From a virus: a stretch of DNA of 64,000 bases. The notes below the pieces were generated by a model. That model was not told where the DNA came from and made no database searches. It was given only the letters and a program-made list of their open reading frames with translations. This document shows, in pieces, positions 1,149 through 53,696 of the stretch; position 1 is the stretch's first letter; each line of letters begins with the position of its first letter. Position numbers and translations under genes: made by a program. Location of the stretch: IMG/VR virus record IMGVR_UViG_3300015263_000597, positions 1 to 64,000 of that record; one strand, 5' to 3'.

Positions 1149-3989
1149 ATGTACCGCGTAGTTTTTGGCAAAGGTCCCAAACCTGCCCGTGTCGCCGCAG
1201 TAGGCGAGAAACCCGGCCGTGAGGAAGCCTATCGGGGTTACCCGTTCGCTGGCGCAAGTGGCAAAGATCTCAGTATGTATCTGCGTCCATACGGCATAGA
1301 CCCCCACGCTGAGTGGTATATAACTAATCTTGACAAGTCGTACGACGAAGGTAACCCGGACCCTACACCGGCGGACATAGAGCACTGGTCTGCGGTGCTG
1401 CGTGATGAACTGGATGAAGTTCAACCTGAGATTATTATCGCTATTGGACGCTACGCTGCTAGCTGGCTACTTGGTAGGCAAGTCGCTATGGAACGAGTGC
1501 ACGGCATGCCGTTCTATAACGCTTATAACGGCGCACACGTGCTGCCTGTGTATCACCCAGCAGCGGCTATGCATCAACCGCGATTTCAGCCCATGACGTC
1601 GTGGGACTATCAGCAAGTAGCGGACTTTATATACACGGGTAAAACGGCAAGGATGTTGCAAGTTGACGAGTATGAGGGGCGTGAGGACTATAGAGACGTG
1701 ACAGGGCAGGAGTTAGTGAAGCTGGCACGCCAGGGGCTCATTACCCCTCAGTACTCCCTTGACACAGAAGGCACCCCAGCAAACCCCTGGAGCGTGCAAG
1801 TATCCAGCACACCTGGCACAGGTTACACCTTGAGGTTAGGTAGCAGTGGGTTCGCCGAAGGAATAGGTACGCTACAGCGCCTTGCGAACGATAACACTGC
1901 GGATATTACTATCCATAACGCACTGTATGATATCCCGATGAGCCGTGTCATGGGGCTAGAGTTAGCTCATGTGCCTATGTGGGACAGTATGTACGCAGCA
2001 TACTTGCTGTGCTTTGAAGCACAAGGGCTGAAGAACCTTGCGTATAGATTTGCTGGCATGATCATGGATACGTTTAGCTCAGTGGTCAGCGGCGCAGGTA
2101 AGCAGAAGCAGTTAGAGTATTTGTTACAGGCAGCTAGTATCGATTGGCCCAAGCCAGCAGCTAGGCAGGTACGCACCAACAACGGCATTACACGAGAGTA
2201 CAGACCGACTGGGATGAACGCGAAGCTTACGCGGATGATTCGCAAGATAAATGAAACTGGCCTAGATCATGTTGATTTACTAGACAGCTGGTACAAGGTA
2301 TCCGGTGAGCAGTACGCAAAGGATGCTGCTATACAAGCGGTACGCATGGTCGAGAGTAGGCTAGGTGTATTCCCTGAACCAACACTTGCAGATGTGCCGT
2401 TAAACGTGGCTATCAGGTATGCGTCGAGAGACCCGGACGCAACATTGCGAGTAAGGTACGGCTTGGAAAAAGAACTAGAAGCGTATGACCTTGTCGACCT
2501 TATGCGCCGCGGCATGTATGCGCTACCCGTAGCCGAAGAGGTACAGGCAACTGGTATGCCAGCGGTGAGGCCACACTTTGAAGCACTTCATGATGAAATG
2601 ATGATCAATGCGCACAGTGTGCAGGACACAATCATAGATATGTTCGTGCCTAGACAGCTTGTGAAGGTTAAGATAAAGGTACCGAAAACAAACGAAGACG
2701 GCACCCCGCAGGTTACTAGAGCTGGCAAAGTTAAGATGAAGACTGTGGCCCTTGAGCAGCTACAGTCTCCAGGATTCAATCCTCGCAGCTCCAAACAAGT
2801 CGCTGAGATGATCACACGGCGAGGACTAAAAGCTCTTAAAATGACAAAAGCTGGCGCACCGTCTACAAGTGCGAAGTCCATAGGTCATCTGGTTCGTGAA
2901 GACGACTTCGTAAGACAGCTGTTTGAATACCGGCACTACTGTAAGGTAGCGGGGGACTTCTGTAAACCTCCTTTAGACAGGCTGCCAGAGAACGCGACAG
3001 CCCCTCTCCCTGTGTATGCGCGATGGTCTATAACAAGGACCACGAGTAGAAGATACGCGACTAGTGGGAAATCTGATTCGTACGAAATTCAAGACATAGC
3101 CGGTCCTGATGAGCCAGACTTGCTAGATGTGAGTGAAGACTTAGCAGACGATTCGCCAGTGCGTACTGCTCGTGTAGCTGGGTTCAACTTGATGAATATA
3201 CCCATTCGCACAGAGCTGGGTAAGCGAGTGCGTGCAGGCTACCAGTGTCCTGCTGGGTACAAAATGATGTCTGTTGATTACGGCAAGATTGAGCCACGAG
3301 TGCTTGCACATCTGTCAGCCGATGAGCTTATGTGTGCAATCTTCCACGAGGATAGGAATATCTACAAAGAGACAGGCGCGCGGTGCTTCGGGGTGCCAAT
3401 TGAGCAAATAACTCAGGAGCAATACAACGTCAGTAAGACCCTGGTACTTGGGCAAATGTACGGTATGGGCGCACTGGCGCTACGCGACACGCTGTGGGCA
3501 CAGGGGTTGTTACACTGGATACTAGAGCAGTGTGAACAGCTTGTAGACGGATTCTGGAATACGTTCCATGGCGCAGCAGAGTACAAACGGCAAGTAGCAG
3601 CAGAAGCACGCGCGGCTGGATTCGTCCGGGATCACTGGGGGATGTATAGGTACCTGCCTAACCTGAACTCGCACGATTTTAAGTTACGTGCCGAGGCTGA
3701 GCGCCATGCAGTTAGTCACAAGGTACAACCTATGGCGCAGGGGATGTTACAGAACGCAACAGGGCGGCTGTGGAGGGAGTTATGCAAGCTGAGAGCAGAA
3801 GGCGTAGACGCTAGGATGTGTTTGCAAATGCACGATGAAATCGTGCTGATATACAGGGACGATCCTGGCGTAGGGGAACTGCTGGAAGCCCTGACCATTG
3901 ATTCATTTGTCAACTACGCAGACGTAGAACTGTCAGTGCCAGTAGTGGCAGAAGCGGCGCACGGAACAAGCTGGGCGGAATTGAAGTAA
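1149..3989 (+). CDS. Uracil-DNA glycosylase / family A DNA polymerase fusion
   Basis: 946-residue replicative polymerase with three parts. Residues 1-170 look like a family 4/5 uracil-DNA glycosylase (GEKPGREEAYRGYPFAG from residue 19, and HPAAAMH near 136). A DnaQ-type 3'-5' exonuclease follows: ExoI SLDTEG near 200, ExoII HNALYD near 254, ExoIII SRDPDA near 424. The polymerase has motif A SVDYGKIEPR near 708, motif B K763-TLVLGQMYG and motif C MHDEI near 893. All three exonuclease acids and the motif A and C acids are present. In motif B the residue equivalent to E. coli Phe762 is Leu767, and the position of Arg754 is Tyr759. Fusion of the glycosylase to the polymerase suggests uracil surveillance during synthesis. 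First large gene of the replication operon. Confidence 0.92.
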   Translation: MYRVVFGKGPKPARVAAVGEKPGREEAYRGYPFAGASGKDLSMYLRPYGIDPHAEWYITNLDKSYDEGNPDPTPADIEHWSAVLRDELDEVQPEIIIAIGRYAASWLLGRQVAMERVHGMPFYNAYNGAHVLPVYHPAAAMHQPRFQPMTSWDYQQVADFIYTGKTARMLQVDEYEGREDYRDVTGQELVKLARQGLITPQYSLDTEGTPANPWSVQVSSTPGTGYTLRLGSSGFAEGIGTLQRLANDNTADITIHNALYDIPMSRVMGLELAHVPMWDSMYAAYLLCFEAQGLKNLAYRFAGMIMDTFSSVVSGAGKQKQLEYLLQAASIDWPKPAARQVRTNNGITREYRPTGMNAKLTRMIRKINETGLDHVDLLDSWYKVSGEQYAKDAAIQAVRMVESRLGVFPEPTLADVPLNVAIRYASRDPDATLRVRYGLEKELEAYDLVDLMRRGMYALPVAEEVQATGMPAVRPHFEALHDEMMINAHSVQDTIIDMFVPRQLVKVKIKVPKTNEDGTPQVTRAGKVKMKTVALEQLQSPGFNPRSSKQVAEMITRRGLKALKMTKAGAPSTSAKSIGHLVREDDFVRQLFEYRHYCKVAGDFCKPPLDRLPENATAPLPVYARWSITRTTSRRYATSGKSDSYEIQDIAGPDEPDLLDVSEDLADDSPVRTARVAGFNLMNIPIRTELGKRVRAGYQCPAGYKMMSVDYGKIEPRVLAHLSADELMCAIFHEDRNIYKETGARCFGVPIEQITQEQYNVSKTLVLGQMYGMGALALRDTLWAQGLLHWILEQCEQLVDGFWNTFHGAAEYKRQVAAEARAAGFVRDHWGMYRYLPNLNSHDFKLRAEAERHAVSHKVQPMAQGMLQNATGRLWRELCKLRAEGVDARMCLQMHDEIVLIYRDDPGVGELLEALTIDSFVNYADVELSVPVVAEAAHGTSWAELK

Positions 3990-20274: not shown

Positions 20275-20314
20275 GGTATGTCTCCTGATCTGTGGTTGGT
20301 TGGCTCATCAGTGA

Positions 20315-20354
20315 CTAGGTACCACCTAGCCAGACGGGGCGTACCCCGTTTCGC
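20315..20354 (-). other. Two-hairpin 3' element, copy 1
   Basis: Just after the stop of the 20356 gene. Stem CTAGG/CCTAG (20315-20329) and stem CGGGG/CCCCG with a TACG loop (20335-20348), preceded on the minus strand by AAGGCGAAA. A second copy at 21924-21967 keeps both stems although the first has different bases, which suggests a conserved RNA structure. Confidence 0.6.
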
Positions 20355-20355
20355 C

Positions 20356-20583
20356 TTAAACTGAGGCAGTCATTAGCTGCACAGACGCACTGAGGAGAGA
20401 GTCTGCCTGAGCAATGCCTGCCTTCATCCACTCTCCAAACCGAGGGTGGCGCTTCTCAGATTCGGTGAAGATCGTCCAGTCAGGAACGGTGTTGTCTAGA
20501 CGGGCAAGAGCGAAGGCACGAATGGCCTTTTCTTCGAGGGCGGACTCTTCGTCGAGCATGTTGCTGGTGTAGATGGCGGTCAT
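20356..20583 (-). CDS. Hypothetical protein
   Basis: ATG 20583 with AGGAG upstream gives 75 residues; the longer frame to 20661 crosses the promoter. Acidic N-terminus, helical body. Begins MTAI like the 20274 product, possibly because both start regions derive from one source. Confidence 0.55.
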   Translation of the reverse strand: MTAIYTSNMLDEESALEEKAIRAFALARLDNTVPDWTIFTESEKRHPRFGEWMKAGIAQADSLLSASVQLMTASV

Positions 20584-21883: not shown

Positions 21884-21923
21884 GTCTGTCCTCCTTTACC
21901 GGGCGTTAGCTGGCATCATCAGA

Positions 21924-21967
21924 CCCTAGGCGCAACCCTAGGGTGACGGGGGCGTACCCCGTTTCGC
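21924..21967 (-). other. Two-hairpin 3' element, copy 2
   Basis: Directly after the stop of the 21969 gene. Stem CCCTAGG/CCTAGGG (21924-21943) and a CGGGG/CCCCG stem with a TACG loop. It parallels copy 1 at 20315 in order and in position behind a gene, with compensating differences in the first stem. No T run, so RNA stabilisation or processing is more likely than termination. Confidence 0.6.
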
Positions 21968-21968
21968 C

Positions 21969-22577
21969 TCAAGCTCGGATAATATGGCAGACTGCGGCTT
22001 CCATTTTCTGGATAGCCCTTGTGTAATCATGAACAAACGTGCCGTCCATGCCGCCCCAATTCGCCGTCTCGTCCGTTTGCTTGAACGTACAATCCTGATC
22101 AGCGACGTCAAAGAACCTCTCGGCCATCGCACAAGCCGTAACTAGCACTTTGTGGGAAAACCCGTGGAAGTATGCGTAGCATCCAAGGCTAGCCCAGCTT
22201 TCGGCTGTGTCTACACAGTGCCCGTCGAAAAGCTCGGCCTCAAACTGGCGAAATTCCTGCTCAGTGACCGGCTTGTACTCTGGACCACGGAACTTGATGG
22301 GGTGGAGCACAGGAGAGGCAGTGTGCTTTGCGACTGCGAGATCTACCATGCGGTCAACAGCGTTAGTCCGGCACTGCCTGTATACCTTGCGAAGGGTGGC
22401 GGTATCGGTACCCACCGTATGGAACGCCATGGCGAAGATGTAACCCACCGTGCTACGGGAAAGCTGGACGCTGTTGATGTTGTCGTCAGTGTCCTCAATC
22501 GCTTGCTCAGAGATGCCCAGCAGCTGGCCGACTTTGAAGATATCTTCCTTACCGCGAGTGGTGTGTGTGTCGCTCAT
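21969..22577 (-). CDS. Hypothetical protein, first gene of sigma54-type operon B
   Basis: 202 residues, GGAAAG before ATG, starting about 50 nt after the predicted start of promoter B. Mostly helical with scattered Cys; no recognised domain. Confidence 0.6.
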   Translation of the reverse strand: MSDTHTTRGKEDIFKVGQLLGISEQAIEDTDDNINSVQLSRSTVGYIFAMAFHTVGTDTATLRKVYRQCRTNAVDRMVDLAVAKHTASPVLHPIKFRGPEYKPVTEQEFRQFEAELFDGHCVDTAESWASLGCYAYFHGFSHKVLVTACAMAERFFDVADQDCTFKQTDETANWGGMDGTFVHDYTRAIQKMEAAVCHIIRA

Positions 22578-53265: not shown

Positions 53266-53294
53266 TTGACATACGTATCTACACAGGCTACACT
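53266..53294 (+). promoter_or_regulatory. Sigma70-type promoter of the double tRNA-like RNA
   Basis: TTGACA at 53266-53271, 17-bp spacer, TACACT at 53289-53294. The predicted start, about 53301, coincides with the 5' end of the outer acceptor stem. Confidence 0.85.
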
Positions 53295-53301
53295 ACGTAC
53301 T

Positions 53302-53418
53302 GGCTGTAGCTCAGTCTGGTAGAGCAAGCGTAGCCGCAGGTTCGAATCCTGCCTCTGTGCGCAGAGTAGCTCAGTCTGGTAGAGTGACGCTGTCAGCGGT
53401 TCAAATCCGCTCAGCCCT
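53302..53418 (+). ncRNA. Double tRNA-like RNA (two tRNA elbows sharing one anticodon stem)
   Basis: Outer domain: acceptor GGCTG/CAGCC (53302-06/53412-16), TA, D arm GCTC-AGTCTGGTA-GAGC (53309-25), T arm AGCGG-TTCAAAT-CCGCT (53395-411). Inner domain, circularly permuted: T arm GCAGG-TTCGAAT-CCTGC (53336-52), acceptor CTCTG/CAGAG closed by a TGCG loop (53353-66), TA, D arm GCTC-AGTCTGGTA-GAGT (53369-85). Both are joined by one stem AGCGT/ACGCT (53327-31/53387-91) at the exact tRNA position 27-31/39-43. No CCA and no anticodon loop, so not a translating tRNA. Own promoter and terminator. A decoy for tRNA-recognising host enzymes is one idea; I know no described family. Confidence 0.75.
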
Positions 53419-53422
53419 TGAG

Positions 53423-53446
53423 AGCCCGGATATACCGGGCTTTCTT
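53423..53446 (+). terminator. Rho-independent terminator of the double tRNA-like RNA
   Basis: AGCCCGG at 53423-53429 pairs with CCGGGCT at 53435-53441 over an ATATA loop, then TTCTT. Confidence 0.88.
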
Positions 53447-53450
53447 GCTA

Positions 53451-53479
53451 TTGACAAGTGCAGCCGAGTAGTCTAGACT
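53451..53479 (+). promoter_or_regulatory. Sigma70-type promoter of the second ncRNA
   Basis: TTGACA at 53451-53456, 17-bp spacer, TAGACT at 53474-53479, beginning only 5 nt after the preceding terminator's tail. Confidence 0.82.
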
Positions 53480-53485
53480 GTACAG

Positions 53486-53635
53486 TCTAGTCCCGCCCTG
53501 CACCCGGTGACAACGAATGAAGGGCGGACTGTTAGAGGGTAGACTACCTGTCTACAAGGTTGAGGCACGGTTAAACGCGGTGCCAACTTGGCCCACACTC
53601 CAGATCCTTAGGCGGGAAGTGAGTGTGGGCCTTTT
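53486..53635 (+). ncRNA. Structured small RNA of about 150 nt
   Basis: No ORF. Stems: AGTCC-c-GCCCT/AGGGCGGACT (53489-99/53521-30) with one bulged C; GTAGAC/GTCTAC (53539-44/53550-55); GGCAC/GTGCC (53564-68/53580-84) extended by AAG/CTT; then the terminator stem. Starts at its own promoter. Function unknown; no family recognised. Confidence 0.72.
53590..53635 (+). terminator. Rho-independent terminator of the second ncRNA
   Basis: GGCCCACACTC at 53590-53600 pairs with GAGTGTGGGCC at 53621-53631, followed by TTTT. Confidence 0.88.
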
Positions 53636-53696
53636 ACTGTCTACCCGTGCCTGAGTTTCATGTAGACGCCGTCTTATTTACCACAGGGGTGTTTAG

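What the first reader, a model, noticed from the sequence alone, without database searches (positions are those of the whole stretch)
53266..53446. A self-contained gene for an RNA made of two tRNA elbows sharing one anticodon stem
The segment first looks like two damaged tRNAs lacking anticodon arms, but their acceptor ends pair crosswise: GGCTG (53302) with CAGCC (53412), and CTCTG (53353) with CAGAG (53362) across a TGCG loop. AGCGT (53327) and ACGCT (53387) pair as one shared anticodon stem at the exact tRNA positions. Both halves keep identical D loops with GG and standard TTCRAAT T loops, and both acceptors have 5 bp. The inner unit is circularly permuted. A promoter starts the RNA at the first pair and a perfect terminator ends it. 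It has no CCA or anticodon loop, so it could act as a decoy or scaffold for enzymes that read the tRNA elbow (RNase P, tRNA modification enzymes, tRNA-targeting defences). I know no described family of this form.
Basis: partly seen in the sequence, partly recalled or inferred. Interest (0 to 1): 0.95.

Follow-up and report, generated by a model that had tools for sequence, protein, structure and literature searches.

The report
Phage twin-tRNA RNA without anticodon
A phage gene makes a small RNA shaped like two transfer RNAs joined end to end at their anticodon stems, with no anticodon, and unrelated phages carry the same architecture in different sequences, which points to an unrecognised class of non-decoding tRNA mimics, possibly decoys for host proteins that grip tRNAs.

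Summary
Window 53302-53416 encodes an outer tRNA body whose anticodon loop is replaced by a circularly permuted second tRNA (T arm, acceptor hairpin, D arm). The two halves share one 5-bp anticodon stem; a sigma-70-type promoter and a terminator bracket the gene. Pattern scans of IMG/VR found the same architecture in at least 20 other phage contigs, including jumbo phages of 185-324 kb, and in the cultivated Burkholderia phage FLC9. Sequences differ, and 26 of 33 base pairs show two-sided compensatory changes. At fixed tRNA numbering the shared stem pairs 4.30 of 5 in twins, 1.67 in three controls. The inner unit matches the tRNA-like module of bacterial Y RNA YrlA (RF02553, positions 26-82 of 114), but the Ro-binding stem and any phage Ro60 gene are absent. 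Anticodon loops are always missing; T loops and a D-loop-like GG are kept. Best reading: a non-decoding tRNA/Y-RNA mimic presenting two elbows, most likely a decoy or tether for host tRNA-binding proteins. That function is inferred. The nearest-neighbour model prefers another fold (D1 paired to D2) for the window copy. The twin architecture was not found in Rfam or the literature searched.

The parts
53266..53294 (+). sigma-70-type promoter, TTGACA - 17 nt - TACACT
   Evidence: 10 of 12 consensus matches; predicted start at about 53301-53302, the first acceptor base
53302..53306 (+). outer acceptor stem, 5' strand GGCTG (pairs with 53412-53416)
   Evidence: family covariation
53309..53325 (+). 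D arm 1 (outer tRNA body)
   Evidence: sequence; Rfam tRNA hit
53327..53331 (+). shared anticodon stem, 5' strand AGCGT (pairs with ACGCT 53387-53391)
   Evidence: family test
53331..53386 (+). inner permuted tRNA unit = YrlA-type tRNA-like module (T arm, acceptor hairpin, D arm)
   Evidence: Rfam RF02553 model positions 26-82 of 114, 37.0 bits, E 6.3e-7
53336..53352 (+). T arm 1 (inner unit), loop TTCGAAT
53353..53366 (+). inner acceptor hairpin CTCTG-TGCG-CAGAG
   Evidence: covarying helix 5
53369..53385 (+). D arm 2 (inner unit)
   Evidence: sequence; YrlA alignment
53387..53391 (+). shared anticodon stem, 3' strand ACGCT
53395..53411 (+). T arm 2 (outer tRNA body), loop TTCAAAT
53412..53416 (+). 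outer acceptor stem, 3' strand CAGCC; no CCA follows
53420..53444 (+). intrinsic terminator, 10-bp stem, T-rich tail

Best explanation
The gene makes a stand-alone RNA of about 145 nt that is a tRNA body in which the anticodon loop is replaced by a second, circularly permuted tRNA body (a YrlA-type tRNA-mimic module). It therefore shows two tRNA elbows, two T-stem/acceptor stacks and no anticodon, and cannot decode. Most likely it works by protein binding: host factors that recognise the tRNA elbow or acceptor/T domain bind it instead of, or tethered beside, real tRNAs. The target is probably a tRNA-cutting defence effector or an RNA-decay/processing enzyme such as PNPase. SHOWN here by comparison: the architecture, its conservation, the loss of the anticodon loop, retention of the elbow elements, the promoter and terminator. 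INFERRED: expression, protein binding, decoy role, identity of the target.
For: Architecture: 26 of 33 pairs covary on both sides, 95.9% of cells paired against 65.1% in shuffles and 35-48% in slid controls (the alignment was hand-segmented, so it leans towards the structure). Independent test on pattern hits chosen without any pairing rule: anticodon stem at fixed tRNA numbering pairs 4.30 of 5 in 23 twins, 1.67 in 3 ordinary tandem cases; outer acceptor and stem pair with their own partner and not with other members' partners, p about 1e-5. Elbow: both T loops are canonical, and a GG lies before the 3' anticodon strand in 23 of 23 twins, even where the inner D stem is lost. Inner unit = YrlA module. 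Published YrlA facts: substrate of the tRNA enzymes DusA and TruB, tRNA-like domain binds PNPase (PMC8394870), proposed competitive inhibitor of an anticodon nuclease (PMC7790460). Phage tRNAs counter tRNA-cutting defences (abstracts). Several phages carry multiple different anticodon-loop-less tRNAs beside normal ones.
Against: No binding partner or transcript is known. Thermodynamic folding of the window copy prefers D1:D2 pairing, and the twin fold is the minimum in only some relatives. No Ro60/TROVE gene in 35 phage records, so the known Y RNA partner is absent from the phage. Many relatives encode CCA and sit in tRNA clusters, which could mean a role in charging or processing. Model scores do not separate twins from ordinary tRNAs on their own (window twin 54.9 bits leave-one-out, ordinary tRNA-Met 46.7). 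No phage relative of the window that spans the site was found.
Confidence: 0.45

Rival explanations
1. It is a Y RNA variant: the permuted unit binds PNPase or another exonuclease as in the Rsr-YrlA-PNPase machine, and the tRNA body replaces the Ro-binding stem as a cap that stabilises the RNA or blocks the nuclease.
For: Same topology and sequence motifs as YrlA; one double-stem twin aligns to the full YrlA model, L138 2253-2369, 40.9 bits; phages are known to interfere with host RNA decay (PMC13282480).
Against: All hits are below the YrlA gathering score of 69; no Ro60 in any of the 35 phage records; PNPase binding by the module without the Ro partner is untested.
Confidence: 0.2
2. It is a regulator of tRNA maturation or translation: a competitor for RNase P, CCA-adding enzyme, EF-Tu or tRNA modification enzymes that shifts host tRNA supply in favour of the phage.
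For: Both elbows and acceptor/T stacks kept, the surface used by RNase P, TruB and EF-Tu (established knowledge); many members lie in phage tRNA clusters.
Against: Window copy lacks CCA and starts at the acceptor by its own promoter, so it needs no RNase P or EF-Tu step; no direct evidence.
Confidence: 0.15
3. It is a pre-tRNA: cutting and re-joining at the anticodon region would yield one or two functional tRNAs, as with permuted or trans-spliced tRNA genes of algae and archaea.
For: Permuted order of the inner half; several relatives encode NCCA after the outer acceptor; some members have two stacked anticodon stems joined by an internal loop.
Against: No 7-nt loop with U33 can be assembled from the junctions read here; window junctions are a bare shared stem; no RtcB in 34 records and an Rnl2-type ligase in only 4 of 34; inner acceptor loops are often only 4 nt.
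Confidence: 0.07
4. It is a decaying pair of tandem tRNAs (pseudogenes) and the cross-pairing is accidental.
For: Two D and two T arms with no anticodon arms; the computed minimum fold is different.
Against: Perfect helices, chance about 1.6e-7; compensatory changes in unrelated phages; intact promoter and terminator.
Confidence: 0.03

Closest known systems
YrlA, bacterial Y RNA (Rfam RF02553; structure PDB 6CU1)
   Same: Inner unit has the same circularly permuted order (T arm, acceptor closed by a loop, D arm) enclosed by a stem at the anticodon-stem position; alignment over model 26-82, 37 bits.
   Different: No Ro-binding stem; the enclosing stem continues into a complete tRNA body instead. 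Score below the family's gathering threshold. No Ro60 gene in the phages.
tRNA (Rfam RF00005)
   Same: Outer body: acceptor, D arm, anticodon stem, T arm at tRNA positions; 29.2 bits against cut-off 29. Relatives often encode CCA.
   Different: Anticodon loop replaced by about 55 nt of structured RNA; 5-bp acceptor and no CCA in the window copy; no anticodon.
Permuted tRNA genes (red algae, archaea) and permuted tmRNA
   Same: 3' half lies before the 5' half in the inner unit.
   Different: No evidence for excision of the acceptor loop or for ligation; no anticodon to restore.
Phage tRNAs that evade tRNA-targeting defences (PMC10264068, PMC11555353)
   Same: Phage-encoded tRNA-like RNAs next to ordinary phage tRNAs.
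   Different: Those are tRNAs that evade or replace cleaved tRNAs and can decode; this RNA cannot decode.

Membership tests
YrlA (bacterial Y RNA) | permuted tRNA-like module: T arm, closed acceptor, D arm | tested here: met
   RF02553 positions 26-82, E 6.3e-7
YrlA (bacterial Y RNA) | Rfam gathering score (69 bits) | tested here: not met
   37.0 bits
YrlA (bacterial Y RNA) | Ro60-binding stem flanking the module (model 1-25 and 83-114) | tested here: not met
   match stops at 26 and 82; flanks form a tRNA body
YrlA (bacterial Y RNA) | Ro60/Rsr (TROVE) gene in the same genome | tested here: not met
   PF05731 absent from the 77,687-bp record and 34 other phage records, some of them fragments; a host copy cannot be excluded
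tRNA | cloverleaf with acceptor, D, anticodon and T stems | tested here: met
   outer body, Rfam 29.2 bits with a 61-nt insert
tRNA | 7-nt anticodon loop | tested here: not met
   sequence; ARAGORN finds no tRNA
tRNA | aminoacylation | not testable with these tools
   no CCA encoded in the window copy
twin-tRNA class described here | outer acceptor pairs across the insert, not with the neighbouring T arm's acceptor strand | tested here: met
   window 5 bp
twin-tRNA class described here | one anticodon stem at tRNA positions 27-31/39-43 shared by both halves | tested here: met
   AGCGT/ACGCT with a 3-nt variable loop; leave-one-out model aligns it full length, 54.9 bits
permuted/trans-spliced tRNA genes | splicing or ligase machinery and a restorable anticodon loop | tested here: not met
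   no U33-type loop; no RtcB, Rnl2-type ligase in 4 of 34 and not in the window's record

The most novel reading that the evidence does not exclude
Phages, jumbo phages above all, encode an unrecognised class of non-decoding tRNAs whose anticodon loop is swapped for a second tRNA elbow (or another structured insert, or even a whole tRNA), diversified in tandem like an arsenal, and used as bivalent decoys against host proteins that seize tRNAs.
Probability: 0.3. Interest if true: 0.92.

Novelty: new variant of a known kind. Interest (0 to 1): 0.8.

Why it matters
It links two known RNA kinds, tRNA and the YrlA Y RNA module, in one molecule that occurs in unrelated phages and that a standard tRNA gene finder does not report. 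If it binds tRNA-recognising host proteins it would be a new RNA strategy in the tRNA arms race between phages and bacteria and would help explain part of the odd content of phage tRNA clusters. The cultivated phage FLC9 makes this directly testable.

Tried and rejected
Close relatives of the window's phage by portal, major head protein and terminase: only two terminase fragments that do not reach the site. Direct DNA similarity of the element in INPHARED: none. First pattern scan had wrong spacings and found nothing. Ro60/TROVE partner: absent. RNA-repair ligases as partners: RtcB absent, Rnl2-type in 4 of 34. Bacterial chromosomes: 31 GTDB hits, no clear twin; mostly ordinary tandem tRNAs or tRNAs with other inserts. 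MAFFT alignment A1 misplaced the inner acceptor, so a hand-segmented, N-padded alignment (A2, A3) was used. A sequence-only model (R2) was built from A1 by mistake and not used. Pseudogene reading rejected because of covariation.

Full report
CHECK OF THE OBSERVATION. The RNA reads: outer acceptor GGCTG, D arm 1, AGCGT, AGCC, T arm 1, CTCTG-TGCG-CAGAG, D arm 2, ACGCT, GTC, T arm 2, CAGCC. The three cross-helices are perfect 5-bp Watson-Crick stems; with this composition and 5 registers allowed per helix, the product of chance probabilities is about 1.6e-7. A TTGACA-17-TACACT promoter would start the RNA at the first acceptor base, and a 10-bp terminator follows. ARAGORN finds only a tRNA-Met elsewhere in the window. 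Rfam sees the outer body as a tRNA with a 61-nt insert, just over its cut-off.

THE COMPETING FOLD. The nearest-neighbour model does not favour the twin fold in this copy: its minimum is -45.2 kcal/mol with D1 paired to D2, against -38.6 for the twin, and the shared stem has probability 0. The two D arms are identical and each is self-complementary, so such pairing is available to any tandem tRNAs. In relatives whose inner D arm is not complementary, the twin fold is the minimum or nearly so (L138b, L018b, L039e with all 32 native pairs; L154, L140 with most). Others, such as L149b and L121a, also have different computed minima. The model ignores D-loop/T-loop contacts. The fold of the window RNA itself therefore rests on comparison and needs probing.

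RELATIVES. The window lies in a 77,687-bp IMG/VR virus record with no near relative among 50,697 phage records by DNA. Patterns that ask only for a D arm, a gap too short for an anticodon arm, and one or two T arms, with no rule on pairing, retrieved over 118 loci and 50 loci from IMG/VR. Of 38 distinct hits with two real T arms in loci L002-L156, 23 pair the first acceptor strand with the far one rather than the near one, 3 are ordinary, 12 are ambiguous on acceptors, and 5 of those 12 also have a 4-5 bp shared stem. At fixed tRNA numbering, with no search, the anticodon stem pairs 4.30 of 5 on average in the 23 and 1.67 in the 3 ordinary ones. Some of the 23 are close relatives of each other. 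On 22 representatives, acceptor and anticodon-stem strands pair with their own partners far better than with other members' partners (6.18 against 3.16 of 7; 4.18 against 2.37 of 5; permutation p about 1e-5), while the ordinary-tRNA pairing A5:Ai5 shows nothing (p 0.72) (some of these members had been picked with acceptor or anticodon-stem filters). On 12 hand-segmented members 26 of 33 pairs have two-sided changes. A model built without the window aligns the window over its full length at 54.9 bits, but ordinary tRNAs also reach about 47 bits, so the score alone is not diagnostic.

FORMS OF THE FAMILY. (i) One shared stem, as in the window: L022, L035, L121 (several copies), L134, L138, L140, L146, L149, L151, L153, L154, L018, and a group with AT-rich flanks (L006, L048, L081, L084, L128 and others) in which ACTGG/CGAGT changes to ACCGG/CGGGT in L081. 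(ii) Two anticodon stems stacked through an internal loop, e.g. L018 7689: outer TCGTC/GACGA, inner TAAGG/CCTTA; also L039, L049, L066, L138 2246, L149 188 (and reading). (iii) Tandem permuted units with no outer tRNA in L002-L005, L064, L201, L202, L205. (iv) tRNA bodies whose anticodon loop is replaced by other hairpins, or by a complete tRNA-Lys with CCA in L146. Many of these lie among normal tRNA genes of phages up to 324 kb, and L039/L049/L018 carry four or five in a row or nearly so. The cultivated Burkholderia phage FLC9 (LC667451.1) has two twins and one hairpin-insert tRNA in its tRNA cluster, none annotated as such. Salicola phage SCTP-2 has a related element, in which the insert holds a GG loop and a T arm inside a stem. 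The outer acceptor is followed by an encoded NCCA in L140, L121, L022, L134/L138/L154, L149 and L103, but not in the window.

WHAT IS KEPT AND WHAT IS LOST. No twin read here has a 7-nt anticodon loop. T loops are canonical with rare exceptions, and a GG is present ahead of the 3' anticodon strand in 23 of 23 twins even where the inner D stem is gone. Selection thus appears to keep two elbows and to discard decoding.

WHAT IT IS LIKE. The inner unit matches the tRNA-like module of YrlA, a bacterial Y RNA, over model positions 26-82 (37.0 bits, E 6.3e-7); tandem units in L004, L002, L202 and L005 match too, 33-49 bits. All are below Rfam's threshold of 69. YrlA's enclosing stem binds Ro60/Rsr, its tRNA-like domain binds PNPase, and it is modified by DusA and TruB (PMC8394870). 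It has been suggested to inhibit an anticodon nuclease competitively (PMC7790460). Phage Y RNA modules and Ro60 in jumbo phages have been mentioned before (PMC7765460, PMC7824862). Here the Ro stem is replaced by a tRNA body and no TROVE gene is found in 35 records. It is therefore not filed as a YrlA; it shares one module. The original YrlA papers (Chen 2014, Wang 2018) are not in the library, so details of phage Y RNAs there could not be checked; that is the main risk to the novelty claim.

MECHANISM. Shown by comparison: architecture, conservation, missing anticodon loop, elbow retention, promoter and terminator. Inferred: the RNA is made, folds as a double L, and binds host proteins that recognise tRNA elbows. 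The decoy reading fits known phage tRNA countermeasures against tRNA-cutting defences (abstracts), but no target is identified. Splicing into decoding tRNAs is unlikely: no suitable loop, no RtcB, few ligases. Confidence is high (about 0.9) that twin tRNAs are a real conserved RNA architecture and moderate to low (0.45) for the protein-decoy/tether mechanism.

Noticed in passing
window 53451-53640 (+): A second small-RNA-like gene directly downstream: promoter TTGACA-17-TAGACT (53451-53479), hairpins and a strong terminator-like end GGCCCACACTC...GAGTGTGGGCCTTTT; folding z-score -3.6, no shuffle as stable; no Rfam match at gathering score.
   Followed up: partly
window 20294-20356 (-) and 21904-21969 (-): Two type II hammerhead ribozymes on the minus strand of the same phage.
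   Followed up: no
L008, L009, L011, L013, L016, L030, L086, L095 and others: Many phages carry single tRNA-like genes with paired acceptor, D and T arms but the whole anticodon arm reduced to a few bases: a second kind of non-decoding phage tRNA.
   Followed up: no
L022:4342-4463, L018:8133-8242, L039:53-183 and 523-629, L121:6286-6418, L140:629-755, L198:2802-2914, L216: tRNA bodies with the anticodon loop replaced by a long hairpin or other structured insert, often with ACCAACC-like bases before the 3' anticodon strand and often ending in NCCA.
   Followed up: partly
L146 about 545-390 (-): A complete tRNA-Lys(CTT) with CCA sits inside the anticodon loop of another tRNA body (outer stem CTTG/CAAG), next to a twin and a tmRNA.
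   Followed up: partly
L202:1193-1552 and 1911-2040: Tandem permuted YrlA-like units about 400 nt downstream of a tmRNA match in a 5-kb phage contig.
   Followed up: no
L167, L168, L186, L188, L192 (cyanobacterial and other bacterial genomes): tRNA genes with a shared insert of about 50 nt ending ...GGTTATCG near the anticodon arm, seen in several phyla.
   Followed up: no
window 1149-3989 (+): A uracil-DNA glycosylase domain and a family A DNA polymerase in one 946-aa reading frame.
   Followed up: no
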